Shown: positions 1,935-37,196 of the stretch, one piece after another
Layout of the letters: each line of letters starts with the position of its first letter
Numbering within the stretch: the stretch's first letter is position 1
Origin: Spiroplasma citri
GTDB taxonomy: Bacteria > Bacillota_I > Bacilli_A > Mycoplasmatales > Mycoplasmataceae
Direction of reading: 5' to 3'
Length of the DNA: 64,000 bases
Assembly: GCF_001886855.1 (NCBI RefSeq)
Contig: NZ_CP013197.1
Coordinates: 806,001-870,000, forward strand
The notes under the pieces: model-generated
What the model was told of the DNA's origin: nothing
What the model saw: only the letters and a program-made list of their open reading frames with translations
The model's database searches: none
Translations under genes and position numbers: made by a program

Positions 1935-2022
1935 TTAAATACTAAAATAAATTATCTACTAAATATCAAAATATTAACCAATAAAGGAATATTATGTTTT
2001 TTTACAGAAAGGAAATTATAAA

Positions 2023-2256
2023 ATGAAAACATTATACGAAATGATAAAAGATTTAACAGGAATTGATGTTGAACAAAATAAAATCAGTGATTATTTAAGC
2101 AGAAAATTTTTAGATTTACATGGTGCTAAATTAAACGGTGCTTATTTAAGTTGGGTTGATTTAAAATGCGCTAATTTATCTGGTGCTAATTTAAAAGGTA
2201 TTGAAATTACAAAAAAACAATTAGAACAATTAACTGTTATTGAGGAGAATGAATAA
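2023..2256 (+). CDS. Pentapeptide-repeat protein of viral origin
   Basis: 77 residues. The N-terminus (MKTLYEMIKDLTGIDVEQNK) is followed by a short run of A(N/D/K)LxG-type pentapeptide repeats (LHGAKLNGAYLS, KCANLSGANLKG) and a polar tail. Pentapeptide repeats fold as a right-handed quadrilateral beta-helix; this one has only about two coils. AGAAAGG gives a good ribosome-binding site. Related genes lie at 49976-50268 (longer, frameshifted), 39279-39434 (decayed) and 21699-21979 (fused fragment). This is the only one of the four with start, frame and stop intact. Its stop overlaps the next start (TAATG). Confidence 0.75.
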   Translation: MKTLYEMIKDLTGIDVEQNKISDYLSRKFLDLHGAKLNGAYLSWVDLKCANLSGANLKGIEITKKQLEQLTVIEENE

Positions 2257-2369
2257 TGAAAAAGTTAAATAAAAAAATTATCAACAAAATAAATGAATTA
2301 ATACTTAGAAGTTATCCAGTTTCAAAAGATGATACTACACTTTCTAGAATTTTGTGAAAAATAACTTAA
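2256..2369 (+). pseudogene. Viral small ORF b, 3' end replaced
   Basis: Begins MKKLNKKIINKINELILRSY, matching the small viral ORF at 20831-20953 and the reading frame at 49341-49454. After SKDDTT the sequence switches into the direct repeat that starts at 2349, so the natural end (DEHWAL...) is lost and a short unrelated tail (LSRILWKIT) is read. The junction marks the left edge of the inserted repeat. Confidence 0.6.
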
Positions 2370-2551
2370 AGTTTAAAAAAACTTTTGCCGCGCTTTTCAA
2401 AGTACTTGGGAAAAATTCTAAGCGTTAAGCGAAGAATTTTATAAAGGTTCCCAAATTTGTTTGAAAGAACTTCAAAAATTTTTTTAACTCGCAAGTGATT
2501 TTATCACAACAATTTAAGAAAGTCAACCACTCGGCCAAAAATTATATTTAC

Positions 2552-2580
2552 TTGACAAATTAAAAAAATAATTATATATT
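2552..2580 (+). promoter_or_regulatory. Consensus sigma-70 promoter in direct repeat
   Basis: TTGACA at 2552-2557, a 17-base spacer and TATATT at 2575-2580. Copy B has TTGACA, 17 bases, TACATT. It faces the PemK-like gene. Confidence 0.75.
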
Positions 2581-2587
2581 TTAAATA

Positions 2588-2685
2588 GAGATGATTAGTA
2601 AATCAGCATCTCAGTACCTAGATCGGTATTTTAAATATCAGGTCATCCCTCTTTTTTTTAAAAAGAGGAACGCATTAAATGAAAG
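2588..2685 (+). promoter_or_regulatory. Structured 5' leader with RBS-sequestering hairpin
   Basis: Two or more stems can form: GAGATG..CATCTC, then tACC..GGTa, then CCTCTTTTT pairing with AAAAAGAGG. The last stem contains the ribosome-binding site AGAGGA just before ATG. In copy B the same stem is CCCTCTTTTT..AAAAAGAGGG, longer but still paired, so structure is kept while the loop changes. This suggests translational control by RNA folding. No known riboswitch class was recognised. Confidence 0.45.
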
Positions 2686-2694
2686 AAATTTTAT

Positions 2695-3153
2695 ATGATT
2701 AAAAAAAATAAAATAAAAAAAATAACTATGTATAGTGTTATTAAATATCATAAATTACATTATTCAAGTTTTCATAATCATTTTTTTGATGAAAAAAATA
2801 ATGAATTAACACTTAAAAAGGGTATTAATTTAATAACAAAAACATTTGATAATGAGTTTATTAAAACTAGACCAGCAATAGTTATTGGTACAATGGGGCA
2901 ATCACTTTTAATTGTACCAACTTCAACAAAAAAATCTATAAATAAAAATATTCAAAATTTTTTTAGAACTAAAATTAATTTAAATGGAAAAGATACTTAT
3001 ATTTGTTGAGAACAAACTAATCATATTTATAATTCACAAATAACTGGATTTTGGTTTGAAGATGGGAAATTATCTTCATTATCAAAATCTTATAAAAGAT
3101 ATATTAAAAAAGAAAGTGAAGTTAAATTAAAAAAATTTATTTTAAATAAATAA
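2695..3153 (+). CDS. PemK/MazF-like toxin-family protein
   Basis: 152 residues (one TGA read as Trp). The core reads KTRPAIVIGTMGQSLLIVPT then STKKSI, the pattern of the PemK/MazF/Kid beta-barrel (R-P-x-hydrophobic-V-I-G...hydrophobic-V-P-x-T), with an Arg in the usual catalytic region. The N-terminal 55 residues and the C-terminal KSYKRYIKKESEVKLKK helix are extra. No antitoxin-sized gene precedes it; the upstream DNA is the structured leader. The start at 2695 overlaps the stop of a 7-codon frame left by the repeat. Family assignment is by motif only. A solitary toxin, or a phage protein of the same fold, is possible. Confidence 0.5.
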
Positions 3154-3175
3154 ATTTTTTTAATTTAACTTCACT
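3115..3175. terminator. Bidirectional terminator overlapping the PemK-like stop
   Basis: AGTGAAGTTAAATTAAAAAA pairs perfectly with TTTTTTTAATTTAACTTCACT. The stem includes the last codons and stop of the gene at 2695-3153 and also serves the convergent terminase relic. Confidence 0.85.
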
Positions 3176-3211
3176 TTTGCATTACCTTATTTTATTTTTA
3201 CAAATTATTTA

Positions 3212-4683
3212 TTATATTCCCATTTTAAAGCGATATGGATAAGAACCATAAAACAAAGCATCATATGGGTCGTGGTACATTTTACTATCGGGTATATTTG
3301 TTTTGGTATCGCTAAATCTTAATTCACTAATACATTTATCTAAAAATGGGAAATTATCTAATATGCCATATATCTTGCCTTGAACAAACATTTTTCGTAT
3401 TCATGTTACACGGTTAATTATTCCCGCTTCTTTATTAAGTGATGTTTGATGTTTTTTGGCTTTAAACATTTTAATCTTATAACCTAAATAAGGGTAAATA
3501 TCTTCTTGTAATTTTTGCATAAAGTCGTGGGCATTAATATCATAATGAAATGTGGCATATTCAAAACCATCAAATTTATCAAATGTATTAATTATTCATT
3601 GTCCGTAATGCTCTACTAATTCATTTAAATTCATTGCATTTTTTGGTGTAATAACATTTTCTTCAATTAAATATTTATCATACTCGTTATTTTCATTAAT
3701 TTTATATCCACTAAATAAAAATACGGTATGGTCTTCGCTTTCATTAGCATAATCAACACCAATTGAATAACTATCAAATTGATACTGTTTTGTATTAGAA
3801 TTATAAAAATCTTTTAAATTATATTCTTTAATATATTTACGATAATTTCGTAAAACATAAATACTAGGGTCATTGTCGTTATATTCAAATCCGTAATATT
3901 CAAGTTCAAATAAGTCTGGTGGTTCTTCTTTGTTGGTTAAAACAAGTTTTTTAGTGATATTAGGTATTTTACTTCAAACAGCCCCCATTGTTAATCGTAA
4001 ATTAAAAACACCTAAACCGTTAAATGCTTGTTTATTTTCTGAGTATATTTGGTTATGTTCTTTTAAAATATTTTTAATTCTTTCATTTAAAAGTAAATAT
4101 GGGGTTACAAATTTTTCATAAAATACGTGGTATTTATCAAAAGGATTAAAAGTAAATTGATTAGAATATGTTTTATGAAAATATGTTGTTATTGTTGTAT
4201 ATTGTTTTGTTATATTATCTCATTCTTTAAATGTCCAAGATAATTCTTTTATAGGAATAGGATTGTCTAAATTATATTGTTCATTATTATTTTCATCGGT
4301 GTATTTTTCATAAGATACTTTTAAACTTTTAGAACGAAACATTGAAACTCTTAAATTATTATATCTTTTATCTAATTCTTTATCAGTTAAGATTTCTTTT
4401 TCTTCGGCATGTATCATTTCATCAGTTCACGCTGTTATAATACCGCTACCTTTACCAACTTTACCCATAATTTTATTACCATTGGCATAACACGACCCGC
4501 AGAAACAAACTTAAAAAAACTTGGTGAAGTAAAATAACGGGCATAACTATCCTCAACAAAGTCTTTAAATACTTCTCAGTCAAAACCAAAATTATAGTCA
4601 CTAAAATTTAAATCATATTTTGTATTTAAATGCTCATAACTAGTAATTCGTTTTTTGTTATTAATTTCAGTAAAGTCTTGCAT
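3212..4683 (-). pseudogene. Phage terminase large subunit, frameshifted
   Basis: The nuclease half is intact (about residues 230-490) with the RNase-H-like terminase pattern. First Asp in SIGVDYANESEDHTVFLF, second in HYDINAHDFMQKL, a GIINRVTWIRKMFVQGKIYG segment, and the final Asp in YHDPYDALFYG, as in SPP1/PBSX-type TerL. The N-terminal ATPase half reads from ATG at 4681-4683 but loses frame by one base near 4490. Across that break lies a P-loop-like GKVGKGSG, a weak Walker A. Downstream it is convergent with the PemK-like gene. Plectroviruses package ssDNA by extrusion and have no terminase, so this belongs to a tailed dsDNA phage. Confident for the family, less so for activity. Confidence 0.7.
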
Positions 4684-4797
4684 TTTTAGATATCCTCGCT
4701 TTCAAATTATGATAAAATAATAAAACTTATCAAATATCAAATTAAGTATTATTAATATTATATTAAAAATATTTTTTAAAGATAGGAAAATAATAAG

Positions 4798-5868
4798 ATG
4801 GAGTTAGAAAAAAATTTGTTAGGAAATTATAAAAAAAATAAAACAATCGAGACACAAAATGAAGTTAAAAATTTATTAATTAATAGAGATAATGAGATAT
4901 TTAAATTATATCAACAAGGACAAATATTACAAGGATATAAGGGTTATATCAAAATTACCAAAAACAATTAAAACAGAATATGGAAATATTCCTATAAAAA
5001 GAAGATTATATGTTAAATATGATGAAGAAAAAAAGAAAATATAAATCATTATCCTTTAGATAAAGAATTAGGTTTAAAAAAATACGAAAGAATTGAAATA
5101 AATTTAAAAAATAAATATATGTCTTTTATAGGTGATGGAAAAAAATATAAAGATATTTTACATACAACAGAGAATGCAAATATTAGTGAAAGAACAATAT
5201 CTAATATTTTTAAAAATGCCGATTTAGAAGAAACCGATTACATTAGTAAAAAAAATAACAATAAAATTAAAATTCCAAATAATATTTTATACATTCAAAT
5301 TGATGGTGCTTTTGAACCAATGTGAGAAAATAAAAAAAGAGTTGAAAATAAAATATTTCTTGCGACTATGCATGTTGGTGTTGATGAAGAAAAGTCAACA
5401 AAAACCAGAATAAAAATGAAAAAGAAAAAAGGCGTTTTCCAAATGATAAATAAAAATGATAAATCTAATATTTATAATTTTATTGATAAAATTTTTAAAT
5501 CAATGGATACTTATGATATTAATGAAGATACTAAAATATTAATATTAAGTGATGGTGAAAAACAAATTAAAAAAATTTATAAAGCAATAAAAGCAAAATA
5601 TAAAAATAACACTGTATCATATAGTTTAGATAGATTTCATTTAGTAAAAAGATTTAAAGACTTATTTTCATATAGAAATAGAAACAAAATTCATAGATTA
5701 AAATATAAATTATCAAAAATATATTTTTTTACTGGAAATCATGAAGCATTATTAGATTTTTTAATTTGTCATTTACCCTATGTTATTGACAGCAAAAAGA
5801 AATTTTTATTAGAAACTATTATATTTTTAAAATCATATACAAAATCACTTTATCATATTCATTTGTAA
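4798..5868 (+). pseudogene. ISLre2-family (UPF0236) transposase relic
   Basis: The 5119-5868 part reads as an ISLre2-type transposase: YIQIDGAFEPMW (first Asp), ILSDGEKQIKK (second Asp) and DRFHLVKRFKDLF. The first 320 bases carry at least two frame changes and internal stops (near 4968 and 5040). The protein ends at 5868, well before the family's usual length, so the catalytic C-terminus is missing. An inactive element. Its right end meets the terminator of the PTS relic. Confidence 0.75.
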
Positions 5869-5887
5869 TTATCAATTGTATCAAAGT

Positions 5888-5934
5888 AATAAAAAATAAA
5901 AACGTTTACTTTAGTAACGTTTTTATTTTTTATT
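5888..5934. terminator. Terminator after the PTS permease relic
   Basis: AAAAATAAAAACGTTACT-like stem (AAAAACGT..ACGTTTTT) with a T-run on either strand, located just downstream of the stop at 5941. Confidence 0.75.
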
Positions 5935-5940
5935 TTAATA

Positions 5941-7700
5941 TTATTTTCCAGAAATTTCAGATAATTTAGTTGCAACAGCTTCAACATTTAAACCAATAAT
6001 AATTTGAATGCCCTTTGTTTTAGAAACTAATACTAAACCAGCGACTCCGGTTGCTTTGATTGCTGATTGATCAATTTTCGTGTTGTCTTCAACTGTTAAA
6101 CGTAATCTAGTCATACAGTTATCAACTTTAACTAGATTATCATGACCAATTGCATCATAAATTACTTGTGCTAGCTTTAATGGCCCATTAGGATCTTTTT
6201 GAATGTCAATTCGTTGATTAACACTATTTTGTGAAGTTAAAATATTTTCACTACCCGCTTGACCATTTTCAACAATATTGATATTTGCTATTTGTTTTTC
6301 TTGGTTTGTTTTTTTTGCATTGTTTTTAACTTTTTTTTCAAATGATTTTGCTAATGCTATTACTTCTTCTTCACGACCAACAACTCAATCAATAAAATCA
6401 GCTTAGAAACCAAATCCAACGCGAATTCCAAAACCAATAGTTAATGCTGAAAATAAACCAGCTAAAACAGCATGTAATCATAAGAAAACCGGGGCTAAGA
6501 AAACAAAAGAAAATTCAATTGGTTCTGTAATTCCTGTTAAAAAACTAACTCCTGCAGCTGACCCTAAAATTCCAGCATATTCAGCACGACGCACTTTATC
6601 TTTAATTGATAAAATCATTGCTGCACAAGCTGCAGGTAATCCAAACATCATCATTGGGAAGAATCCTGATTGGAAAATTCCACTTCCTCCTGCTAAACCA
6701 AATTTAGCATCAGCATATAATTTTCCTAAAAAGGCGTTAATATCACCATTGACTGTAGTAATAATTCCAGTTGTATTTCAATCACTAATTCGTAATACAC
6801 CGTTACTATCAATACTATATACAGCCCATTGTAGCGTTCCATCAACAATTTGTCATAAGTTTGTTCCTTGATAATTCATCAAATGGCCAATAATTGGTTG
6901 TTGGAACCATAAATAAGTGTTTAACACTTGGTGTAACCAAAATGGTAATAATAACCGGTTAAAAATAGCATAGAAGAAAGCTCCTAATGGTGGAATCGCT
7001 CCTAAACCATAACCTAAGTATTGTAATCCTAATTGAAATCATGGTCAAATTGCTGCTAATGCAAAAGAGCCTAAGAGAAAATAAACTGCTGTTATCATTG
7101 GCACAAAACTACGACCTGAAAAAAATCCTAGGGCTGCTGGTAACTTAATACCAGAATATTTATTATTAAATTAGCGCAACAAGACAACCAGCTAAAATTC
7201 CACCAAAAACACCCATACTAATGTTATATTTTGCACCATAACCTTTAATAGCATCACCAACATTAAAATCAAAAACATATAGAATTTGTGAATGTGGTTT
7301 TGCTCAAAATTGATTATCTAAAAAATTACTAATTGGTGTATTTCCTAATAAAACATTTATTGTAATATCATTGTGGGACAATTCCCATTAGTCCTTCTAA
7401 AACAGCTCACCCAAAGAAAGCAACTAGTGCTGCTTCTCCACGGAAGTCTTTTGCCATTCCGAAACCTAATCCGATTGCAAATAATGGTGCTAAATTACCA
7501 ATCGCAGCATTACCAACCGCTTGAAAAATTGAACCAATATATCAAATTGCTGACAATGATCCAGTTTGATTTAACTCTGGATTGATTGAGGCATAATTCA
7601 TGCCCCCAATCGTAGCAACAAAGCAGAAATTGGTAGCACAACAATTGGAAATTGTAATGCTTTTCCTAATTTTTGTAAATATTGTATTTTATTTGTTCCT
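5941..7700 (-). pseudogene. ptsG: PTS glucose-type permease IICB, multiply disrupted
   Basis: Translates in pieces to a PTS IIC domain of the glucose/N-acetylglucosamine superfamily (QFPIVVLPISALL near the start, [27 protein letters not shown]) and a C-terminal IIB domain with the phosphocysteine site NCMTRLRLTV. No IIA domain follows, as in Spiroplasma PtsG. At least four lesions are visible: frame changes near 7600, 7370 and 7165, and a TAA within GFGF-stop-ADFIDW near 6403. No ATG is found at the expected start (ATA instead). The lesions mean no functional permease from this locus. Which sugar it moved cannot be told. Confidence 0.8.
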
Positions 7701-7762
7701 TTTCTTTTTATTCTTTTTTTAGTTTACATAAATTGACATGTTATAACTAAATGATTAAAAGA

Positions 7763-8034
7763 TTATATATTAAGTTTAATAATTGTAACTATACCAACTA
7801 TTAATGAGATTGCAAATAATGATGATAAAATCAAAAAAATATTTTGTTTAATTTCAAACAAAAAAATTCGTTCACGTTGAACTCCTAATCGTTTTTCTTT
7901 GAACTTAGCATTTTTATTTCGTCAGTATAAAAAGTGAATTAATAATAAAATGATGATGAAAATAATACTAATCCAATTCCAGCATTTAATGCCATATTAG
8001 CAACTAAGGTTTGACCCAGTAATTTATTGTTCAT
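7763..8034 (-). pseudogene. Small membrane protein, one frameshift
   Basis: Starts MNNKLLGQTLVANMALNAGI, changes frame by one base near 7950, then continues LLLIHFLYWRNKNAKFKEKR and a second hydrophobic segment ending in a stop at 7763. Two or three membrane helices around a basic loop. Unrecognised. The single lesion could be an error or real. Confidence 0.5.
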
Positions 8035-8384
8035 TTTAAATATCTTTTTCTACTTTTTAACTATACGTTTTATTATCTTTTTGAATAGTATTTAAAAAGA
8101 TAATGTTATTTCATTAATTGATGTAACATTAATGAAAACATTGTAAAAATTTATAATAAAAAATAAATATTTTAAATATTCTTTGTTTTATAATAATTTA
8201 ATTAATATAACTATTATCATTTTTCATTTTATTTTTTTATATGAATTAAATAGTTATATTTTAAATATCTATAATCTTTTTTCATTTTTTTCTAAGTATA
8301 AGTAGTCATACTTATATTTGTATTATAACACTTTTGTTTTCTAAAAAAATCCTATAAAAAATTATATTAGATTTTAAGTAATTA
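8035..8384. other. No gene seen; AT-rich spacer
   Basis: About 350 bases between two minus-strand genes. I see no ORF with a ribosome-binding site. It contains AT-rich words that could serve as promoter for the gene at 8034, and a short palindrome-like AAGTATAAGTAGTCATACTT near 8295. Confidence 0.4.
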
Positions 8385-8385
8385 A

Positions 8386-8412
8386 AAACCTTCTTTTTCA
8401 AGAAGGTTTAAA
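8386..8412 (-). terminator. Terminator after Cys-rich protein gene
   Basis: AAACCTTCTT-GAAA-AAGAAGGTTTTT on the minus strand, 20-45 bases after the stop at 8430. Confidence 0.85.
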
Positions 8413-8429
8413 TATTAGTTTTCCCTAAA

Positions 8430-8738
8430 TTATTTTTGTAATTGTTGATCATAATATTTTTTTGTTTTATTAATATTGTTTTTGCCAACAAAAACAAAGT
8501 TATGTTTTGATTTAACACAATCTGGATTGATACAATGCAATTTATACTCACAAGGTTTTGAGCGACAGAAAAACACCGGTTGTTCACACATTTGGCATGA
8601 TAAAATTGTTTTTTGTGATTCTTGCATTGCAGCACATTTTTTACATTCTTCAGCATGTTGTTCGCAGCCAATGAAGACACTATCTGGCATTGCTAATCTT
8701 TTTTTTGTTTCAGTTGAATTGTTATTTTCGAAAGCCAT
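8430..8738 (-). CDS. Cysteine-rich putative zinc-binding protein
   Basis: 102 residues with eleven Cys and several His, in patterns CEQHAEECKKC, CQMCEQPVFFC, CEYKLHC and PDC, suggesting two or three zinc sites (treble-clef or ribbon-like). No signal peptide. A ribosome-binding site (AAAGGAGA) precedes the ATG at 8738. A strong terminator follows, so it is monocistronic. I do not recognise a family. A nucleic-acid or protein-binding role is only inferred. Confidence 0.7.
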   Translation of the reverse strand: MAFENNNSTETKKRLAMPDSVFIGCEQHAEECKKCAAMQESQKTILSCQMCEQPVFFCRSKPCEYKLHCINPDCVKSKHNFVFVGKNNINKTKKYYDQQLQK

Positions 8739-9119
8739 AGTTTTTGTGTTCTCCTTTCATAAAATACTTGTAATAAACACCTCTCTTATCAAAAAATTAT
8801 CGACGCTAATGGTAAAACATTAATGCCGATGAATGATAAAACTTATCTTTAAGGGTTAATACAAATTTTAGTATATATTTTTTAATAAAAATTAACAATG
8901 TTATTCCTGCCAATAACGTTGATTATTAAGGGTTTGATGAAATAATTTGGTAATTTATGGAAAAAATTAAATAAAATAAGTTATTTTATTTGAAATAATT
9001 TATACATATTCAATTTAATTATTAGTTTATAAAATAGAATTTATTGTAAATTTAAACTTGAAAAAAAATACAATAAAATTATCGATAACTTTAATCGAAT
9101 AGAAAGGAACATATAAAAA

Positions 9120-9436
9120 ATGAAAAAAATTTTAACAATTCTAGGAGCAATTAGTTTTTCTACAGTTGGAGCAAGTAATGTTATTGCTTGTAATTCAATA
9201 CATGAAAATGAAATTAAAAGTCTTCAAAATCGACTATCAACTTAAAAGGGAAAATTGATAACTTAAAAAATGTTAGTGAAGAGCAAAAAGAACAACTAAA
9301 GTTTGCATTAATAGAACTTGAAAATGGGTTAAAAGGATTAACTTCAAATGAAATTAAATCAATGTCAAAAACAGACATTGATTTATTAAAGTCAGCAATA
9401 TCTTTCTTAGAAGAGCAAATTAATAAATTAAGTTAA
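9120..9436 (+). pseudogene. Lipoprotein, one frameshift
   Basis: Typical Spiroplasma lipoprotein leader (MKKILTILGAISFSTVGASN then VIAC) with the lipid-modified Cys at residue 24, then a Lys/Glu/Leu-rich coiled-coil-like mature part ending EEQINKLS. A one-base change at about 9240 (after RLST) breaks the frame; the two halves join naturally if a base is added. About 105 residues when repaired. Exported, membrane-anchored, unknown role. Confidence 0.65.
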
Positions 9437-9463
9437 ATAAATATTATTTCCGAAATATTAAAG

Positions 9464-9503
9464 ATGTTTCTTTTAACTGGATATTACCAGTTAAAAGAAA
9501 CAT
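9464..9503. terminator. Strong bidirectional terminator
   Basis: GTTTCTTTTAACTGG-ATATTA-CCAGTTAAAAGAAAC, a perfect 15-bp stem between the lipoprotein gene and tpx, which converge. Confidence 0.9.
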
Positions 9504-9525
9504 TGTTTTATTTTATTACAAGTTT

Positions 9526-10032
9526 TTATTTTTGAAAAGTATCTAAAAACTGGTAAACTTCTTCATAATTTGGTTCGGAAGAAATTGGTGAAACAATTTG
9601 TAAATAAATAATTTTATTATCTTGATCTAAAATCATTACGCTTCGTGCTAATAAATTATTAAATGGAAAATATAATTTTGTTTGTGTGCCAAATTCACGA
9701 TAATTAGTATCAGATAATAAAATATGGTTTGCATTAACAAAACCTTCACATGCTCGTTTCAAAGCAAATGGCAAATCACGTGAAATTGTTATTAATTGAA
9801 CATTAGGATACTTGCTAATAATTGTTTCATTAAATTGTTTTGTTTGTGTTAAACAAACACTAGTATCTATACTAGGTACTGCGGAAATAACTTTATATTC
9901 TTTTGTTATAGTTTCTAATTCAAAATCTTGTCAATCAACCATATCAGCTTTAAATGATACCTTGTGACCAACTTGAAGATGATCTTTTGCAAGCAAATTT
10001 TTAACATCGCCACTCATTGTTCTTACTGCCAT
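9526..10032 (-). CDS. tpx: Thiol peroxidase
   Basis: 168 residues, full length for Tpx. Atypical 2-Cys peroxiredoxin that reduces hydrogen and organic peroxides using thioredoxin. The peroxidatic Cys60 sits in VPSIDTSVCL (the family P-S-x-D-T-x-V-C motif) and the resolving Cys95 in KRACEGF, the spacing of E. coli Tpx. The ATG at 10030-10032 has GGAGGAAAC upstream. Cytosolic. It stands alone between terminators and divergent or unlinked genes. All conserved residues present; no lesion. Confidence 0.95.
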
Positions 10033-10083: not shown

Positions 10084-10893
10084 TTATGATAATAAAGTAT
10101 TTCAAGCATTTTCAATTATTGTTCCGATGGCTTCGTCAGTTATATAGTTAATCGGATTTGTTGTTCGTTGTAGTAAACAAATAAATTCAATGTTTTTCTT
10201 TTTATTTCCTAAAATTGGAGAATAGTCGCAATTGTTAACACTAAAACCATTATTAAGGGCTAAAGCAAAGATTTTTTTAATAACATCATAGTGTATTGCT
10301 TTATGATTAATTTTTCCTCTCTTAACAGCTTCTTTTGTACTCTCAAACTGTGGTTTAATTAAGAAAAAAGCATAATGATTTAATAATATAATATCTTTTA
10401 AGGGTGGAATAATTTTATCTAATGAAATAAAAGAAACATCACAACAAGCAATTTCAATTTCATCAGGGGCAAATAATGCTTTAGTAACATACCGAAAATT
10501 CGTTTTCTCTAATGAAACAACACGAGGATTATTTCGTAATTTTCAAGCTAATTGATTTGTACCAACATCAACAGCATAAACTTTTTTAGCATCATTTTGT
10601 AATAAGCAATCAGTAAAACCACCAGTTGAAGCACCAATATCAAGACAAACTAGATTCTTAACTGTTAAATTGAAAGCAGTTAAACCTTTGGCTAACTTTT
10701 CACCTGCTCGGGAAACATATTTTAATGGTTCACCACGTAATTTAATAATACTATCTAATTTTACCAATTCACCTGGTTTTAAGGCGGGTACATTATCAAC
10801 TAAAACATTATTTGCTAAAATCATTGCCTTAGCTTTTTCACGCGAAGGAGCTAAATTATTATTAACCATTAATTGGTCCAACCGAATTTTCAT
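10084..10893 (-). CDS. tlyA: TlyA-family rRNA 2'-O-methyltransferase / hemolysin A-like
   Basis: 269 residues. The N-terminal S4 RNA-binding domain (MKIRLDQLMVNNNLAPSREK..KAMILANNVLVD) is followed by a Rossmann methyltransferase: YVSRAGEKLAKGL, SAM-binding LDIGASTGGFTDCLL, VYAVDVGTNQLAWKL, and CCDVSFISL. In the family this methylates ribosomal RNA ribose 2'-OH; many homologues are annotated as hemolysin A. It follows the gene at 10900-11412 by 6 bases, with its ribosome-binding site GGAG inside that gene's end, so the two form an operon. Intact. Confidence 0.92.
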
Positions 10894-10899
10894 TAAAAT

Positions 10900-11412
10900 T
10901 TATTCTCCTTTTCATTGACTTTTATTAAATGCACGTTGGTTCTGATAACGAAATAATAACCGTTGTTTTCGAGTTTTTGTTTCACGATAAGTTTCTAAGA
11001 TTGTATCTTGTGCTAAAATGTAATTAGTAATTTCTTTAAAAAAGTAAGCACCATATGATAATGACCATTCTAACGAAATAAAATTTTGATCAATTTTAGC
11101 TTCAATAATTTTTGAATAATTACTAATAATGTAATTACATTCTAGCATAATGTTATTAATATTATTATATTTAAAAAGGTAATATGTTGTTTGTGGTAAT
11201 TGATATTTTTGTGCTAAAAAAGCAAGATTTTTTGGAATAATTAATTGTTGAGTATCTAAATCAATTGAAATATCAACTGGTTTTCATAATGGAACATAGT
11301 GGATTTTTCCCGATAAAGTTAATAAGCGTTGTTTAGTATCTTGTGATATTTGTCACTTTTTTGCTCATTTGTTATTTGCTCAATTATAATAATTAAACTT
11401 GTTATTTTGCAT
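10900..11412 (-). CDS. Hypothetical protein upstream of tlyA
   Basis: 170 residues (several TGA-Trp codons), start MQNNKFNYYNWANNKWAKKW. Soluble, aromatic and basic. Contains PLWKPVDISIDLDTQQLIIPKN, then a mostly helical C-terminal half with ETYRETKTRKQRLLFRYQNQ. It is transcribed with tlyA and could act on the same RNA substrate, but I recognise no domain. Confidence 0.7.
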
Positions 11413-11728
11413 CTCATCACCCATTTGACTAAAGTAATTATACCAAATTTAACAAGAACAAAAAAGAATTTAAATAATAATTTTATTTTAAATTAAATTT
11501 AATTATTAATTATATCTTATTTTTTAAAAAAATAAATGACTTTTTTAAATAAAAAAAATATTTTTAAAAGGCAAATTATTTACAGTTCTTAACTCAAAAG
11601 TGGGAAAAAAATTGATATTTTAATAATTATAACTAAATTAATTGTACCCTAAAATGAGAAGAATATAATGAAAGTGTAAATAATATTTATGGCGTCAATA
11701 TAGATATTTTTACAGGAGATGATTAATA

Positions 11729-12226
11729 ATGTTTGGTTATAAGAATATCTTAGTTGGTGTTGGAGCAATTCCGTTGGCAACTACCCCGTCATTATTATTA
11801 TCGAATACAGCATTTATCAATAATACATACAATAAAACTGCACATAATAATAAAAAACCGAGGAAAAACTAGGAATAACATATCAACAATTTTATCAAAA
11901 TAATAAATCAAATATTAATCTAACAAATATTAAAAATTTAAAAGATGGGATTAATGAATGAGATTATTATTTTGTTTATTCACACTTATACTTAAATCAT
12001 ACTTTATTAACCAAAGTTCAAAATGATTTAGGATCAGTTGGAGGAGTTATTGCAACCTTATTAAGCACAATCCCAGAAATTGCAACTGTCGATGGAATTG
12101 TTGCTGCATTTATTAATTACACAATGATATATCTGAAATATTCCACCATATGATCAGGGTAATGGCGTTGGTGTTAACTTAATTGGAGTAGTTCCTCAAC
12201 TTATAACTTCTGTTTGAGCACAGTAA
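11729..12226 (+). pseudogene. Secreted-type protein with Gly-rich hydrophobic C-terminus, two frameshifts
   Basis: Start MFGYKNILVGVGAIPLATTP with a signal-peptide-like hydrophobic segment and ACAGGAGATG as ribosome-binding site. One base is missing near 11860 and the frame changes again near 12140. Repaired, the body contains LGSVGGVIATLLSTIPEIAT, AVDGIVAAFI-like sequence and ends GNGVGVNLIGVVPQLITSVW. The hydrophobic Gly/Ile-rich tail looks like bacteriocin-type secreted proteins of Firmicutes, but this is only a resemblance. Inactive as it stands. Confidence 0.5.
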
Positions 12227-12276
12227 GTTATTAGTTTATTATCAAAACAGACAAGGCCCAGATTTATTATTTACAC

Positions 12277-12303
12277 TACTGCTAGCTGTTGCTAGCAGTT
12301 TTT
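12277..12303 (+). terminator. Terminator after the secreted-protein relic
   Basis: ACTGCTAGC-TGTT-GCTAGCAGTTTTT, a 9-bp perfect stem and T-run. Confidence 0.9.
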
Positions 12304-12540
12304 ATATGTTTTTTAAAAAGATTTTACTTGTGTTTTTTTATTTTTTGTAATTTAGTGACTTAAAAAATAATTATTTTAAATTTGAAAATTAAAAAGCATA
12401 GACAATTCTTGGTAAAGATTAAAAAATTAATTAAGTTACTATTAAAGAAGCAAAAAAAACAATTTAATACAATTTTTTAAAATAAACATTCTTAGTTTAA
12501 AGCCAAAATCAATAATTATTATAATCGATTATAATAAATA
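12304..12540. other. No gene seen; AT-rich junction to viral block
   Basis: About 240 bases with no credible ORF on either strand. It is the boundary between chromosomal DNA and the plectrovirus structural cluster that ends at 12541. Confidence 0.4.
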
Positions 12541-25889: not shown

Positions 25890-28865
25890 CTATCGAATTC
25901 TTTTCTTAAATCGAAAGTAAAATCATATTCCACCAATTATTATTCCAATTATTGGAATAATAATAATGGGCAACAATCATCGTAAATATCTTTTATCAGA
26001 ACCATCATTTGAATTATCTCCCGGAATAATTGGTTTATTAGGGTCAATTGGTTCAATTGGACCTGGTGGAATATCTGGTGGAACTATGGCATTAACATCA
26101 TTTTCAAGACTAAAAGATGTCATTCCGGTTGTTAAATCACTAGCATTATTTGCATATAAAAAAACAGTTATTTTCTTTGTTTGTGTTGTATTATCTAAAA
26201 AGTCTTTAAAAATGATATCATCAAAATATCCGGGAACATTATTGTGACTATCATCCTCAGGCGGAATTTTATTAATTGAAATTCCATAATCTTGGTTAAA
26301 AACTAATTGAGAATATTTTGGGTATAAACCTTTATTAATATTATCAATAATTCATTGTTTTAATTTTTCAATCGTATAACCTTCAAAATTATATTTCCCA
26401 CTTTTAAACTTAATTTTTGATAAATCTACGACTTTCTCTGGGTCGTAATTTTTTGAATTTTTAATGCTTCCCTTTGCTTCACCAATTAGTAATGATGATA
26501 ATGGTTTTGCTTTAATTTTGATATCAAGATATTTTGGACTTGTTGCATTATCTAATAGTGATTGTAAAGCATCAGGATTACTATTAATATCAACGCCTTC
26601 TTTGGTAACAACCGTATAGTCATTTCCTAAAACAGCGCCACTTACTTTTTGATTAATATAATTTTGGGCATAACTTAAAACTAAAGTACGGATTTTATTT
26701 GTATCAATTTCGTTCATTTTAATTGCTGGGAAATTACCTGAAATATCATAATAATTTGCTGGATTTGGATCTGGTGGAACTTTTTGAGCAATAATATCAC
26801 TTGCATATTCTTTTCAATAACTAGCAACTTGTTCGTAGTTTAAAGCTAACATTTGTTCAGTATTTAATTTTTTAACATCAACTAAATAATTTTTTAAATG
26901 CACTCCATGAATAGTTGATCAAAATTCAACAGCTTGATTATTGTCAATAGTATCTAAAAAGCGTGGATATTTATTTTGATATTCTACTCCAATAATTGCA
27001 TACTTTTGGGCAGTTGTTCCATCAGCCATTGTAACAGTATAATGTCAAATTCCAGTATCTGCTCAATAGTTTCCTGTTTGATCAGATTGAATTTGTTGGT
27101 TCTTTTGTCGGTCCGTGGGACTAGCAACACCTAATAAATTGCTGGCATTAACAGCACGCCGATAAACTGAAGTAATATTTTGATCATTAAAAACTTGGTT
27201 CACACCCATTCCCGAAATTGAACCTTCTGCAATAAAACCTAAGTCATAATCTTGTGGATTTTTCTCTGGATTAATTACTTCTCCGTTTTTATTTAACGGA
27301 TCAAGTGGAGTTGGAACCTCTGACTTATGTTTAACTCACAAAATTTGAGTTTTAGTTCCTGTACTTGGATTAATTTCTGAATCATATTTTGGATTAGGCT
27401 TACCATCTGGTAAGGTTTTTTTCACAAGTTCAGCTTGATCAGGATTATTATTTGGATCTCAAGCATATCATTTTAATTGCAAATTAGGAACAAGCGTTTC
27501 AATTACAATTTCAATGGTATATTGTTCTTGATAAGTTCTGTCCTTATAATAAATATCAATTCGATAACTATGTTGTTTATTTGTTCCAGTAATTCGTTTA
27601 TCTTCTAATGTTGCACTAAATTTATTGTCTAGCACTGAAACTGGTTGACCATTAATTTCGACATATTCAGGATTAATTGTTCCATCATCAGCTTGTTTTA
27701 AAGCATCAAATTCCATTCCAATCGAAGTATGATAACGATATTTTCCACCATAACTCTCTGCAATATTTGGTGGTGCTAATGTTTCTGGTTCATCAGTAAC
27801 CATCACTTTTGTTGAATCATTTTTATCAACAATTTTTCCTGGAATAATATGTAATCGTTTTAAAATTATATTTGCTCAATAACCACTACTTAAGCGAAGA
27901 TTAATGGGAGTAACAAATGTTCATACTTCTTGTTGGCCAGTTTCTGGGTTCCGAAATTTAATTAAGGTTGTTGCTTTCCGTGTTTCATCAGAAAAGGACG
28001 GTGGTTGAATAAAATTTGCTCAACTGTCATATTCATTGCCTAGTTGTTTTCTTATGATTTCATTTAATTTTGTTGGTAAATCATTTCCCTGGCCAGTTGG
28101 ATCTTTAATATTACTATGATCTGTTAAACTACCAGAATAATTCGATGTAAAATCTAATGTTTTACTTAATGCAGAATTTAAATTATTTTTTAATTTATTA
28201 ACATCATGACTAGAATTAAATGTTAACGATTTAATATTTACTCCTGCGCCAGCACTAGTTACTTTATCATTTCCTCCGGCAATAACGACAATATAAACAT
28301 AAAAATAAAACATATTCCCACTAACACGATAATCTCAAGCAATTCCTTCATGGGTATTGGTATCATCATCAAAACTTAAACTATAAACTGCTAAAAAATC
28401 ATTTCAATTAGTACTTCAACCTCCATTTGCTCCACGAGAATTAACTTGTGAAATAAAATAACTATAGTTATCGGGATAAGCACTACTTTTATTTTGAATT
28501 CTTTTTGTTAACGTATCATTATAATTATTGTGGTGAAAAAAACTTAAACTAAAGTTTATGTTAATTGAATTATAATAATTAAAAAATTGGTTATTATTGT
28601 TGGCATACTGTGAAATATCAACCGCATATTCATATCGTTTAACAGCTGATTGTTGTTGGTGAACTTGGTAGCTATAAAAACCATTATTAAAATTTTTCGT
28701 AAAAGTTGGATAAATTGGGGCAACAGACTGTGTCTGCATTAGTTTTAAATTATTTATTGAATAATTGTCTTGCTGTAACTTGTTAGTTTGGTTTTGCAAA
28801 TAATAATATGTCATTGAATTTGGAAATAATGTACTTGCCAGCAAGAATAAAATAATTGCTTTCAT
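25890..28865 (-). CDS. Large surface protein with signal peptide and C-terminal anchor
   Basis: 991 residues, fully intact in code 4. N-terminal signal peptide (MKAIILFLLASTLFPNSMTY). Extracellular part of about 940 residues, rich in Asn/Thr/Tyr and almost Cys-free. Near the end a Pro-rich stalk (VPPDIPPGPIEPIDPNKPI), a single membrane helix (LPIIIIPIIGIIIGGIW) and a basic cytosolic end RFKKRIR. This is the layout of Spiroplasma adhesion-related proteins and of the large plectrovirus surface/adsorption ORF. Which of the two it is cannot be decided here. Its intact frame amid decayed genes implies selection. GGAAAAATG gives the ribosome-binding site. Confidence 0.8.
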
Positions 28866-30620: not shown

Positions 30621-31502
30621 TTATCATGCCTCACATCTTCTACCTTTAAAGAGACTATGAAAAGATTTTAAATCATTTTCATACTCAGGATTTAATTCTA
30701 TACCTAAATACTCAATATTATTAATTTCTGCAACTGTGCATTCAGAACCTGAGCCAGCAAATGGTATTAAAGTTCTTCCATTATTACCATTTATACGTGA
30801 AAAAATTAATTTTTCAGTTAATTCAGTAGGTTTTTGCGTAGGATGTATTATTAACTTATGATTTTCACGTTCTTTTTTCACTTGAATGGTATAACTTATT
30901 ATTACAATCTTTGCACATAAAATGGCGTTTAACCATTCCTGTTCCTGCTGCTAAAGCAGGTATTTTTATAACATCTCTAGGCAATGCACCTTTTTCATTA
31001 ACTTTATAAATTGTTGTTTTTGTTCCAAATCTTCCTTTTGTATTCATGCGCTCTTTTACATTTAATTTCATATAACTATCTGTATAAGGTTCTCTTATCT
31101 GATCAATTTCTAAATTAGGTCTTTGATCTTTTCATAAACATAAAATAGCTTCATGTGATCTTTGTCAAAAATTAGAAGAAGGTGATGTTTTATTAGTATA
31201 ATGTCAAATTAAAAATCTTTGTTTTTCAATAGGAAATTGAGCTACAATTCTTGCCAAAATTTCAGAAAATCCATATATATACAATAGACCATTATCAGAT
31301 AAAAAATTTAAACATAATTTAATTCATTTTTTAGTTCAATTAATGTATTTTTTCAATTCCATATAATCAATATTATTACCAAAATCTTTTCCAATATTGT
31401 ATGGAGGGCCTGCTATTATTACATCAAATTTTATACTCTGATCCATTTTTTTAAAACTTCAATAACATCTCTGTTTATTATTTTTGATTTAAAATTAATC
31501 AA
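30621..31502 (-). pseudogene. DNA methyltransferase (beta class), two poly-A frameshifts
   Basis: Order of motifs is the beta class: catalytic IIAGPPYNIGKDFG first, then the target-recognition region, then HPTQKPTELTEKLIFSRI and the SAM-binding FAGSGSECTVAEI. The catalytic D-P-P-Y is G-P-P-Y here, itself likely inactivating. One A is missing in a run before MDQSIKF (near 31446) and the frame changes again in AAAAAA near 30880. With a TTG start at 31500-31502 behind GGAGG, the repaired protein has about 293 residues. It presumably protected the host from the neighbouring endonuclease. Confidence 0.75.
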
Positions 31503-32379: not shown

Positions 32380-34189
32380 ATGATTGAATATTTGTTCCTA
32401 TATTTCAAATTTTCATTATTTAGTTACTCCTTCTTCAATACAAATTCAGCAAAATACAACAATCCAAGACAACAGTACAAGTTATATAATGATTGATGAA
32501 AAAGATATTTTAATTAATGATATTTCAAAACAAGATAAATAATTTTTAGAAACATTAGACTTAAAAATAATTTCTATTAATAAACCAATTAGTGAAGACA
32601 ATAAAAATGAATGCTATATCATTGAAGAATATAAACACCCCCTATTCATTAGAGGGGATTGATATTATTAAATCTATGCATTTAATTAAAATAACTGACT
32701 TTAAATGAAAAAACCAAAATAGTATTCATTTAGTATTACAAAAATCATTGTCCGAAGATATAGTATTTACTGGGATTGAAATTAAATATCCTAAATCTAT
32801 GTTATTTGGTAATATTAAATGCTTAGGAAATATCAATGGTGTTTATTCATATCCTTCATCAAATATTGAAAATGCTAGTTTAGTACCATTATTATCAATG
32901 CCATTTGAAACAGAACCTAATTTAAGAGTATTTAAATATTGATTTACAGAAAGTTTTTTACCTTGAAGTATTGCTAAAAATTACATTCAAGGAAAAGATG
33001 TATTAGATTTAATAAATAAAAATGGTTTAGATAAAGTTTTATTAAATTATTTAACATATCGCTACAATTATGATAGAAAATTTCAAGGAGCAAAATACGA
33101 TGAAAAAGGTAATCCCACAAATAAAGCGGCCGAATTACACCAACAATTCGAAGGACAAAAACCCGAAGAAGTAATTGATGGTTTATTTGAAAATTGAAAA
33201 TTAGATAATCCAACTCTTATTAATGATAATGTTGTCAAAAGATTTAAACAAATTATCTATATGTTATCAAATTACACATATAGCAAATATGCAATTAATA
33301 AAGGCTATAATGATGATGTTAAATTATTTTCGCCTTATTACTTTGAATTAGTTTCTAATCCAAGAGAAGAAGAAACTGAATATTGAGTATTTGAAAGTTG
33401 CAAAGTTGAATTAAATTCATTATATTTTAATTTTAGTGGCAGTGGTCCTATTCCACCTGAACCAATAAATTATTGAATGAAAGTTTATGCAAATGATAAA
33501 CCATTTATTACTGTTGATAATAAATATTATTTTATTGTGTGGCGTGGTGATAAAAATGATGATTGAAAAATTATTAAATTTAAACATTTTGAACAAAAAG
33601 AAAAAGTTTTAGATAAATATGATACATATGAACTTAAAACATCTCATTTTGGTGGTGATTTATTTATAAAAATGGATTTGTAGGTTATGATTGAAATAAA
33701 GATGATGGAACTTATTTTAAATCAGTTTATCGTTGAAATAAAAATAGTGAGCCAAAAAACAATATTAATAACAAAGACAATGAAATTAAGATAACTGTTA
33801 AAAACAAAGATATTTCAGAAAATCCTATTTATCAATTAGAAGCAAATTATTTTAATTGATTATCATTAACAAATGAATTAGAAACAAATAATATACCTTC
33901 TCTTATTCCAGCAGAAATCAAACTTTCAAATGGTGAATATGGTAAATATTTAACTAATTTAATTGTTTTTAATGACAAAATAGAAGATTATTTAAACTAT
34001 TTTTCGCAATGATATAAATTACTTTATTCTAAGTTATCTTGAATGAGTATGACTAAAAATTTAGTTGTAGATAATATTAAAATAACTTATGATGTTAAAA
34101 TATTTGCTTTAAATCAAATTGAAATATCTGGAATATGGGGTGATGGAAATTATGATATTACAATTTTTACAATTAGATTAGAAATATAA
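32380..34189 (+). pseudogene. Phage-like structural protein with lipoprotein-shared domain
   Basis: About 600 residues when repaired. A TAA at about 32540, a one-base shift near 32640 and a 4-base deletion (ATTT) near 33667 break it. The middle reads WFTESFLPWSIAKNYIQGKD, YNYDRKFQGAKYDEKGN, LFSPYYFELVSNPREEETEY; the end reads SKLSWMSMTKNLVVDNIKIT, IWGDGNYDITIFTIRLEI. Residues from KPFITVDNKYYF to KSVYRW are identical to the mature domain of the lipoprotein encoded at 34217-34708 on the other strand. A virion or tail role is inferred from its neighbours. Confidence 0.5.
33499..33739. repeat. 240-bp inverted repeat, partner 34277-34522
   Basis: Identical over the whole length except for the 4-base deletion near 33667 (TTTATTTATAAA to TTTATAAA). 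It codes for the same about 80-residue domain in both genes. Confidence 0.9.
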
Positions 34190-34217
34190 AAAGTCATTTA
34201 TTAAAATGACTTTTTAT
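34189..34217. terminator. Bidirectional terminator
   Basis: AAAAAGTCATTT-ATTA-AAATGACTTTTT between the structural gene and the lipoprotein gene. Confidence 0.9.
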
Positions 34218-34708
34218 TAACTAACTTGGATTACACCATCTTTATTAACTATTAAATTAGGTTCTTGTATATCTAAATTTCAACGATAAACTGATTTAAA
34301 ATAAGTTCCATCATCTTTATTTCAATCATAACCTACAAATCCATTTTTATAAATAAATAAATCACCACCAAAATGAGATGTTTTAAGTTCATATGTATCA
34401 TATTTATCTAAAACTTTTTCTTTTTGTTCAAAATGTTTAAATTTAATAATTTTTCAATCATCATTTTTATCACCACGCCACACAATAAAATAATATTTAT
34501 TATCAACAGTAATAAATGGTTTTTCTTGTGGTGCTATTCATACTAAATTATATTTGATTTCTTGGTTATCAGTATTAATTTTGTTTTCTGCTTTTAATTT
34601 TTTTAATTCATCTTCATTATATTGTAATTGTGTATTACAAGCAACTAAACTGGTTGTAGTTGTCCCTATTAAGGTGAACGTACCTAAAAGACTTAATATC
34701 TTTTTCAA
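34217..34708 (-). CDS. Lipoprotein sharing a domain with a phage structural gene
   Basis: 163 residues. Lipoprotein leader KKILSLLGTFTLIGTTTTSL then VACN, lipid Cys near residue 23-24. Then a 25-residue linker and the domain KPFITVDNKYYFIVWRGDKN...YFKSVYRWNLD, ending NKDGVIQVS. Start is TTG at 34706-34708 because AAAGGAA lies 8 bases upstream and no ATG fits. The same domain occurs in the phage gene at 32380-34189 and, more distantly, in the lipoprotein at 36378-36779 (IYRWDGVGEPTL against VYRWN..EPNL). Membrane-anchored on the cell surface. A prophage-conversion or superinfection role is a hypothesis. Confidence 0.75.
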
Positions 34709-34757
34709 TATGATAATTCCTTTCGCTAAATTTTTTATATATTATTTTTATAACATA

Positions 34758-35376: not shown

Positions 35377-36258
35377 TTATATATTCTGCAAAAACATTTC
35401 TTTAGCACTTATTCATTTTAAACACGGTCGGAGTTTATCATTTATAACATTAACTACTCAATCTATTTATTTTTGACTAACATTATTAAAATCAGTTCCC
35501 TTAGGAAATCAATATCTTAATTTACTATTCATATATTCAATTAAAGGTTTTTGTTGTGGTGAACCAGGATCACAAAAATACACTTGTGTTTCAGCAAATA
35601 TTTCCATTTCTCGTCATTCACTAAATTCTTTTCCGTGATCTGTTATTATTCCTTTAATTTTTCCAATTAAATTATTATTTATAACAATATCTTTAAACTT
35701 TTCAAAAACTTCATTAGCAGTATGATTTTCTAATTTTATTGCAAAATATTTTTTACTTGATTGTTCTACTAAAACTAAACAACTAGATTGATGGTTTTTT
35801 CCAACAACAGTATCCATTTCAAATCATCCAACATTAGAAACTTTATTTTCAATATCTCAAATTGACTTAAAATCAGTTAATTTACCACGATTATCAGATT
35901 TTCCTTTTGTTTTATATTTTTTACCACGATGTCGCAAATTCTGTTTTAAAAAACCATAAAAACCTAAACGAATTCATTTATACAATGTTTTAACACAAAC
36001 CCGAAATTTAACACCAAATTTTAAAAAATAACGATAAATAAATTCTCTCGGAGAATCACAATATTTATCTTACTTATAAGCACTATATTCATCAATAGTT
36101 TTAAATCTCTTAATTTCTCGTAAAATAGTACTACGATGTCTATTCAAAAATTTAGCGATTGCAGAAATATTCTGTTTACCATTCTTTTTTAAAAACATTT
36201 TTGATAATAATAATTGTTCTAATTTAACTTTATCTATAAAACTCAAATGACTATACAT
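35377..36258 (-). mobile_element. IS30-family transposase, deleted and interrupted
   Basis: MYSHLSFIDKVKLEQLLLSK, helix-turn-helix IAKFLNRHRSTILREIKRFK, then AYK-stop-DKY: a 30-residue deletion (present at 51230-51310 in the other copy) plus a TAA. The DDE core is otherwise complete: WFEMDTVVGKNHQSSCLVLV, GIITDHGKEFSEWRE, and a Glu-containing region in which IEYMNSKLRYWFP replaces the usual NGEFR motif. Not able to make transposase. Confidence 0.8.
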
Positions 36259-36377: not shown

Positions 36378-36779
36378 ATGAAAAAATGACTTAGCATAAT
36401 AGGAGCAATCGGATTAACCGCAACAAGCACAACAACACTAATCAGTTGTAAAAAAGAAAATAATAATAAAAACGAAGAAGATAATAAACCAGAACTACCA
36501 GATAATCAACAACATAATCCACAAAAACCACCAAAAGGTAGTAATTGAAAATTAATTAATGGTTTTGTTAATGAAAAAAATAATGATAATAAAAATTATA
36601 TTGGAATTATTAAAATTGAAAATGGTTTTATAATTATAAAATGAATTGGAAAATATATAGATTATAAATATCAATATATTAACATTTATCGTTGAGATGG
36701 CGTTGGTGAACCAACATTACCTCAAATAGATAAAAATACCGGTGAAATTACTGACTGAAAAGAACAAAAAAGGAACTAA
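36378..36779 (+). CDS. Lipoprotein with the same small domain
   Basis: 133 residues, intact. Leader KWLSIIGAIGLTATSTTTLI with lipid Cys in ISCKK. Low-complexity Lys/Asn/Pro linker, then a domain NWKLINGFVNEKNN..IIIKWIG..YINIYRWDGVGEPT ending DWKEQKRN. The domain is related to that at 34217-34708. AAAGGAGACAATCTAA precedes the ATG. Surface lipoprotein; same style as spiroplasma virus-associated lipoproteins. Confidence 0.7.
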
Positions 36780-36798
36780 ATAACAGTTCCTTTTTTAT
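36767..36798. terminator. Bidirectional terminator
   Basis: AAAAAAGGAACT-AAATAAC-AGTTCCTTTTTT overlapping the stop of the lipoprotein gene. Confidence 0.9.
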
Positions 36799-37127
36799 AT
36801 TAATCGCACAAATTTCATAAAAATAATTAATAAAAAGATATTTGTTATTGCACTATACAACGCTGGATTAAATTTTCATACCTCAAATATTTGACTAAAA
36901 AAACTATATACTGTTTCAAAAACCTTACCAACACCACTCGCTAATTCATTAACTTGTTTAACTACCGGAATAGTATTAACAATTCAAATCACCGCACTTC
37001 TAATATGAGCACCAAAATCTCATCAACCATCTGGCATTACATATTGCACTTGTCATCATTGTTTATCGGGGAACAAACCACCATTATTAATTTCTTGTCA
37101 GTTATAAATCCCAAAATTAAAAGGCAT
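36795..37127 (-). CDS. C-terminal part of a plectrovirus membrane protein
   Basis: 110 residues from MPFNFGIYNWQEINNGGLFP. Aromatic-rich, PDKQWWQVQYVMPDGWWDFG, then IWIVNTIPVVKQVNELASGV and a membrane helix NIFLLIIFMKFVRLI. The frame is open upstream (FFAASLYT) until the terminator repeat at 37145, so the N-terminus was cut by recombination. It resembles minor structural proteins of SpV1-type viruses. Confidence 0.6.
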
Positions 37128-37144
37128 CGTGTACAATGAAGCGG

Positions 37145-37196
37145 CAAAAAACAACTCTTGTTAGGGTTGTTTTTTATTTGAAAAACAACTCTTGAA
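37145..37196. terminator. Viral-type terminator units
   Basis: AAAAAACAACTCTTGTTAGG pairs with GGGTTGTTTTTT; a second partial unit follows. Same family as at 14033 and 19966. Confidence 0.6.

What the first reader, a model, noticed from the sequence alone, without database searches (positions are those of the whole stretch)
33499..34522. A phage structural gene and a surface lipoprotein share one identical domain as an inverted repeat
About 240 bp are identical in opposite orientation in the phage-like gene (32380-34189) and the lipoprotein (34217-34708). The lipoprotein joins a signal peptide to the same about 80-residue domain; a diverged version is in the lipoprotein at 36378. If the domain in the virion binds the cell or another virion protein, a secreted anchored copy could block infection. 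The gene copy carries a 4-base deletion, the lipoprotein copy is clean, so the lipoprotein is the maintained form.
Basis: partly seen in the sequence, partly recalled or inferred. Interest (0 to 1): 0.75.

Follow-up and report, generated by a model that had tools for sequence, protein, structure and literature searches.

The report
Phage attachment-protein domain copied onto lipoprotein
Several unrelated kinds of phage that infect Spiroplasma carry the same highly variable domain twice, once in a virion protein that probably touches the cell and once, facing the other way, in a small surface lipoprotein, and the two copies are kept matched within each phage, which suggests that infected cells wear a copy of their phage's own binding domain to keep its relatives out.

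Summary
The inverted repeat (33490-33746 / 34270-34530, 97-98%) is one of at least 35 such pairs found in seven Spiroplasma genomes and two isolated phages. A lipoprotein gene always converges with a virion-protein gene of one of three unrelated kinds: a tailed-phage protein (type A, as here), a siphophage protein coded downstream of the tape-measure/Dit genes (type B), or plectrovirus ORF1 (type D; the corresponding gene 1 of a plectrovirus is described as the adhesion protein).

Within a locus the two copies are 90-100% identical; between loci they are 44-48% identical on average. In nine type-B loci the genes are 96-98% conserved except for two islands, both this domain, with about 55% divergence. 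Own partner is the best match in 30 of 30 pairs. Where loci share an allele, sites group by locus (37) and never by gene (0), which is concerted evolution. One allele occurs in both genes of a type-A and of a type-B phage.

Best explanation: the lipoprotein is a decoy of the attachment domain that causes superinfection exclusion, kept matched by gene conversion between the arms. Matching and concerted evolution are shown; receptor binding and exclusion are inferred. The frameshift in the window copy is decay of this one prophage.

The parts
32420..34189 (+). decayed type-A virion-protein gene (N-terminus missing, in-frame stop near 32540, frameshifts, 4-nt deletion in the domain); intact relative is a 737-aa ORF
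   Evidence: 85% identity to the domain-masked L011 partner over 279 aa, 80% over the last 138 aa
33490..33746 (+). inverted-repeat arm 1: hypervariable domain inside the virion-protein gene, with a 4-nt deletion
34270..34530 (-). inverted-repeat arm 2: the same domain inside the lipoprotein gene, reading frame open
34217..34708 (-). lipoprotein gene (163 aa; signal peptide, lipobox LVAC, linker, domain); TTG start; proposed superinfection-exclusion decoy
34190..34217 (.). A+T-rich palindrome (AAAAAGTCATTT-ATTA-AAATGACTTTTT) between the two convergent genes, probable shared terminator
   Evidence: read directly in the sequence, (the scan needs G+C-rich stems and did not list it)
34718..34725 (-). 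ribosome-binding site (GAAAGGA) of the lipoprotein gene; conserved upstream of the relatives
36378..36779 (+). orphan plectrovirus-type (type D) lipoprotein carrying another allele of the domain
36795..37154 (-). C-terminal remnant of plectrovirus ORF1 (DUF3688), convergent with the orphan lipoprotein; the part that would hold the domain is gone

Best explanation
The domain is the variable cell-contact module of the virion's attachment protein. Each phage also encodes a membrane-anchored, secreted copy of its own module on a separate, oppositely oriented gene. Made in the infected or lysogenic cell, the lipoprotein occupies the receptor (or titrates the incoming tip) and so excludes phages carrying the same allele, and keeps released virions from re-adsorbing. 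When the virion gene acquires a new allele from another phage, gene conversion between the inverted arms copies it into the lipoprotein gene, or the reverse, which restores the match; the inverted, tail-to-tail order lets the arms recombine without deleting the genes between them. Shown: matched pairs, hypervariability, concerted evolution, allele transfer between phage types, lipoprotein signals. Inferred: receptor binding, exclusion, and conversion as the route.
For: (1) Matching: 30 of 30 pairs have the own partner as best match, 97.2% on average against 44.3% between loci; further plectrovirus pairs at 93-99.7%. (2) Hypervariable islands: over nine type-B loci the divergence is 2-4% in most windows outside and about 55% at the core of both copies, while the 700 bp between them stay mostly at 2-5%. 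(3) Concerted evolution: informative sites 37 locus-matched, 0 gene-matched, 5 crossed. (4) One allele occurs in both genes of a type-B and of a type-A phage whose signal peptides differ (L041/L042). (5) Partner identity: plectrovirus ORF1 (DUF3688); ICTV describes gene 1 of SVTS2 as the adhesion protein CoaA (PMC8295915); the type-B gene lies downstream of tape-measure, Dit and tail genes, where siphophages usually code the host-binding tip. (6) Type A and B partners have no signal peptide while the lipoproteins do, so the two copies can compete only outside the cell. (7) The lipoprotein genes mostly have their own promoter-like and ribosome-binding sequences. (8) SVTS2 lacks the domain in ORF1 and also lacks the lipoprotein and the repeat. 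(9) Precedents: Ff pIII made in the cell saturates TolA and gives superinfection immunity (PMC7070036); T5 Llp lies beside receptor-binding protein pb5 (PMC9586334).
Against: No experiment or expression data. The fold matches nothing known, so receptor binding is not supported by structure. Phage R8A2B carries a mismatched pair (33% aa). Type C phages (MaM-2019a group) have the lipoprotein but no recognisable domain in their large protein. Within-pair pN/pS is only 0.57, so DNA homogenisation explains most of the identity. L041 and L042 carry one allele in the same genome, and identical prophage copies occur, so exclusion would not be absolute.
Confidence: 0.58

Rival explanations
1. Homotypic binding: the domain sticks to itself, and the lipoprotein captures the tip of an incoming virion of the same allele (trapping it or spoiling its attachment protein), without sharing a host receptor.
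For: Allele matching at protein level would be needed for this too; the partner seems to present the domain after a helical stretch (predicted helices only).
Against: No evidence of self-association; the model is a monomer only. In type C the lipoprotein occurs without a homologous virion domain.
Confidence: 0.15
2. The repeat is mainly a recombination device: the lipoprotein gene serves as donor or hotspot for swapping or inverting the variable tip of the virion gene, with the lipoprotein product of minor importance.
For: The arms do recombine: locus L012 is a head-to-head palindrome joined through the arms, giving a lipoprotein-signal/virion-C-terminus fusion. Cassettes move between phage types.
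Against: A donor archive should differ from the expressed copy, but the copies match. The lipoprotein keeps signal peptide, lipobox, linker, ribosome-binding site and an open frame in nearly all copies. Apart from L012 no inverted configuration was seen.
Confidence: 0.12
3. The lipoprotein is a lysogenic-conversion surface protein of use to the bacterium in its insect or plant host (adhesion, immune evasion), and the virion gene has borrowed its variable domain.
For: Surface lipoproteins of Spiroplasma interact with insect hosts (spiralin, general knowledge; cf. PMC12453411). Type C and orphan loci keep the lipoprotein without a partner.
Against: Does not explain allele-by-allele matching with the virion gene in three phage types, nor the joint absence in SVTS2.
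Confidence: 0.1

Closest known systems
Ff (M13/fd) pIII superinfection immunity
   Same: The phage's own attachment protein, made in the infected cell, saturates the receptor and blocks superinfection (PMC7070036); plectroviruses are in the same order and ORF1 resembles pIII in having an N-terminal signal peptide and a C-terminal membrane segment.
   Different: Here a separate lipoprotein gene carries only the variable domain, and it also occurs in unrelated dsDNA tailed phages.
T5 Llp / Cor family exclusion lipoproteins
   Same: Small phage lipoprotein encoded next to the receptor-binding protein gene (PMC9586334).
   Different: No shared domain between Llp and pb5 is described there; Llp is periplasmic and acts on FhuA from inside; Spiroplasma has no outer membrane.
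Ltp lipoproteins of Streptococcus thermophilus phages (TP-J34)
   Same: Cell-surface lipoprotein encoded by a temperate phage of a Gram-positive lineage (PMC3952083).
   Different: Ltp targets the tape measure protein and is a repeat-containing helical protein; no shared domain with an attachment protein, no inverted repeat and no allele matching reported there.
Annotated inverted repeats of SpV1-C74 and SkV1_CR2-3x
   Same: The very same feature: repeat_region records of 244-246 and 291 bp in ORF1 and downstream of it.
   Different: The records give no function and do not annotate the lipoprotein gene in which the downstream arm lies.

Membership tests
Superinfection-exclusion lipoproteins (Llp/Cor/Ltp kind, defined by function) | phage-encoded small lipoprotein with signal peptide and lipobox | tested here: met
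   Window 34217-34708 and relatives, including isolated phages MaM-2019a, SkV1 and R8A2B
Superinfection-exclusion lipoproteins (Llp/Cor/Ltp kind, defined by function) | shown to block infection by the same or related phages | not testable with these tools
   needs infection assays
Ltp family | sequence similarity to Ltp / host-cell-surface-exposed lipoprotein domain | tested here: not met
   no Pfam match, no PDB sequence match with the profile, no fold match with E <= 0.001
Plectrovirus ORF1 adhesion proteins (DUF3688, PF12461) | DUF3688 domain | tested here: met
   type D partner L025:5029-7215, E 4e-256; window remnant 36795-37154, E 2.5e-55
Plectrovirus ORF1 adhesion proteins (DUF3688, PF12461) | the window's own partner gene (32420-34189) belongs to it | tested here: not met
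   no Pfam match for the window ORF or for the intact type-A relative; its phage has a terminase-like gene and relatives of MaM-2019a head genes
Siphophage receptor-binding / tail-tip proteins (type B partner) | gene lies downstream of tape measure, Dit and Tal-like genes | tested here: met
   L032: tape measure 2303-3853, Dit_N 3857-4789, tail protein 4810-6258, partner 10743-12380
Siphophage receptor-binding / tail-tip proteins (type B partner) | structural similarity to known receptor-binding proteins | tested here: inconclusive
   AlphaFold model of the partner failed, pLDDT 29
Site-specific DNA inversion / shufflon switches | dedicated invertase and alternative orientations | tested here: inconclusive
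   apart from L012 no inverted configuration was seen, and L012 is a palindromic rearrangement; no invertase was noticed, but none was searched for

The most novel reading that the evidence does not exclude
A previously undescribed self-specific exclusion module: an attachment-protein domain and its decoy lipoprotein diversify as an allele-matched pair that is kept in step by gene conversion across an inverted repeat, and the module is shared as exchangeable cassettes by unrelated ssDNA and dsDNA phages of one host genus.
Probability: 0.45. Interest if true: 0.9.

Novelty: new variant of a known kind. Interest (0 to 1): 0.8.

Why it matters
It gives a function and a testable mechanism to inverted repeats that have been recorded in SpV1/SkV1 genomes without an explanation, and points to unannotated lipoprotein genes in those classic phages. 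If true, it shows how superinfection exclusion can stay specific while the attachment protein changes: the phage carries a linked copy that is rewritten by recombination. It would let receptor usage in Spiroplasma phages be read from sequence, since alleles are shared across phage types, and would predict which resident prophages protect against which phages in insect symbionts and plant pathogens. It also offers one candidate for virus resistance linked to integrated viral DNA in S. citri, although the case reported for SVTS2 (cited in PMC8140453) cannot be explained this way, because SVTS2 lacks the module.

Tried and rejected
Accidental local insertion: rejected, at least 35 pairs. Recent single duplication without further exchange: rejected by 37 locus-matched against 0 gene-matched sites between loci sharing alleles. 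Invertible switch: apart from L012 no alternative orientation was seen, and L012 is a palindromic recombinant. Hidden domain in the large protein of type C phages: HMM search and profile-profile comparison negative; its C-terminal about 280 aa is hypervariable too, but its identity does not follow that of the lipoproteins overall (Spearman -0.08, p 0.61). Structural identification: the lipoprotein model is good (pLDDT 82, domain about 90), but Foldseek against PDB and BFVD gave nothing with E <= 0.001; the type B partner model failed. IMG/VR scan found no relatives. Promoter scan of the window: no more sites than in shuffles, so promoters rest on conservation by eye. Mutual exclusion of alleles among prophages of one genome: all alleles of the 14 pairs in G000 differ, but numbers are too small to test, and S. 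phoeniceum P40 has a shared allele.

Full report
Observation. The window lies in a Spiroplasma-type genome (code 4) at G000:C1:806001-870000. The inverted repeat exists: arms 33490-33667/34353-34530 and 33658-33746/34270-34358, 97-98% complementary, or 249 columns at 98.0% with one 4-nt gap in the phage-gene copy. The lipoprotein 34217-34708(-) has a signal peptide with lipobox LVAC, a linker and the domain; it starts with TTG where relatives have ATG.

The arrangement is general. The lipoprotein DNA found 52 places in its own genome, many as opposite-strand neighbours. Reading those loci showed pairs at 95-100% identity over 245-317 bp. In 14 pairs of this genome lipoprotein and partner copies agree at 95-100% within a locus and at 48% on average (at most 66%) between loci. 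With loci from Spiroplasma phoeniceum, S. poulsonii and other genomes of the genus, 30 pairs were assembled: own partner is the best match in 30 of 30, 97.2% against 44.3%, permutation p 5e-5. Seven further plectrovirus pairs have 93-99.7%; two of them repeat alleles already counted. Strong relatives were found only in the window's genus; other genera of the family gave only weak matches, E 3e-4 to 2e-8, which I take to be lipoprotein signal sequences but did not check.

Partners are of three unrelated kinds. Type A (the window, L010, L011, L015, L042, L069, L094, L113 and others): 737-815 aa where intact, in a tailed phage with a terminase-like gene (Terminase_3, E 2e-4, below the curated cut-off) and head genes related to phage MaM-2019a. 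Type B (L013, L014, L016, L018, L023, L041, L044, L047, L078): about 545 aa, downstream of major tail protein, tape measure, Dit and tail genes of a siphophage. Type D: plectrovirus ORF1, DUF3688; ICTV describes gene 1 of SVTS2 as the adhesion protein (PMC8295915), although ORF1 of SVTS2 itself does not match DUF3688. In the isolated plectroviruses the lipoprotein gene is not annotated, but the records of SpV1-C74 and SkV1 carry repeat_region features exactly there. Type C phages (MaM-2019a group) have the lipoprotein convergent with a large protein of about 1070 aa, without the domain and without a repeat.

How it evolves. Over nine type-B loci the 2.8-kb stretch from partner start to lipoprotein start is 2-4% divergent in most windows and rises to about 55% at two islands, the domain in the partner (aa 400-490) and the domain in the lipoprotein; the about 700 bp between them stay mostly at 2-5%. 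Both islands carry the same allele within each locus. For four pairs of loci that share an allele, informative sites are 37 locus-matched, 0 gene-matched, 5 crossed: the copies evolve in concert. Alleles cross phage types: L041 (B) and L042 (A) of S. phoeniceum share the allele in both genes although the signal peptides are type-specific. Within-pair differences give pN/pS 0.57 (130 against 51 changes, p 9e-4), so there is some constraint on the protein, but low pS (3.8%) shows recent DNA homogenisation. That the arms recombine is visible in L012, a head-to-head palindrome joined through them, with a fusion of lipoprotein N-terminus, domain and virion C-terminus. In all pairs seen the genes are convergent, an order in which exchange between arms cannot delete the intervening genes (inference).

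What it does. Type A and B partners have no signal peptide and, as parts of tailed phages, should be assembled in the cytoplasm; the lipoprotein is exported. The two copies can therefore meet or compete only at the cell surface, at adsorption (inference). The lipoprotein genes have a conserved ribosome-binding site and, in most groups, promoter-like sequence of their own. SVTS2, a plectrovirus whose ORF1 is 395 aa and lacks the domain, also lacks the lipoprotein and the repeat. Ff pIII made in the cell saturates TolA and blocks superinfection (PMC7070036), and T5 Llp, an exclusion lipoprotein, is encoded next to receptor-binding protein pb5 (PMC9586334). The simplest reading is a decoy of the attachment domain that excludes phages of the same allele.

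Limits. The AlphaFold model of the lipoprotein is good (mean pLDDT 81.6; about 90 over the beta-rich domain), but no PDB or viral structure matches with E <= 0.001, so the binding partner is unknown. The partner model failed. R8A2B has a mismatched pair (33% aa); its ORF1 allele resembles an orphan lipoprotein in the window's genome (L019:8280-8687, by eye). In C74 the lipoprotein has two 1-nt deletions, perhaps a sequencing or laboratory artefact. Nothing here tests binding or exclusion.

The window itself is a graveyard copy: the type-A partner is N-terminally truncated and frameshifted, while the lipoprotein is open. The neighbouring lipoprotein 36378-36779 is a plectrovirus-type orphan beside a remnant of ORF1 (36795-37154); related alleles in ORF1-like partners are present in other genomes of the genus (G003, G007, G012; 66-74% aa).

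Noticed in passing
L012 (G000:C1:640000-650000), 1275-9651: Large palindrome (arms 2.2 and 1.4 kb, 95-96%) joined through the domain repeat: a head-to-head phage rearrangement with two facing lipoproteins, one fused to the virion C-terminus.
   Followed up: partly
L043, L052, L054 and other type C loci, C-terminal about 280 aa of the 1070-aa protein: The C-terminus of the large type C protein, next to the lipoprotein gene, is hypervariable (about 30-55% differences) while most of the rest is 2-10%; possibly another attachment tip with a non-homologous lipoprotein partner.
   Followed up: partly
L026 (SpV1-C74) 4074-4485; L027 (R8A2B) 4834-5232; L028 (SkV1) 1365-1829: Unannotated lipoprotein genes in classic plectrovirus records; frameshifted in C74, intact in the other two.
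   Followed up: yes
L102 (G004:C1, a 57.6-kb contig) 1152-8600: Three consecutive proteins of about 700 aa that match the lipoprotein profile with a signal-peptide-like start.
   Followed up: no
window 25890-28865: 991-aa protein on the minus strand with a Spiralin-domain match (PF05215, E 2e-7) and a C-terminal membrane segment; looks like a surface protein.
   Followed up: no
window 30621-31446: DNA methyltransferase (N6_N4_Mtase) in two frames, apparently frameshifted.
   Followed up: no
window 35467-36258: IS30-type transposase in pieces between the two lipoprotein loci.
   Followed up: no
L015 (G000:C1:1371000-1382000) 3204-5135: 834-bp inverted repeat of plectrovirus ORF7/ORF12 (99.8%) directly beside a type A pair.
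   Followed up: no
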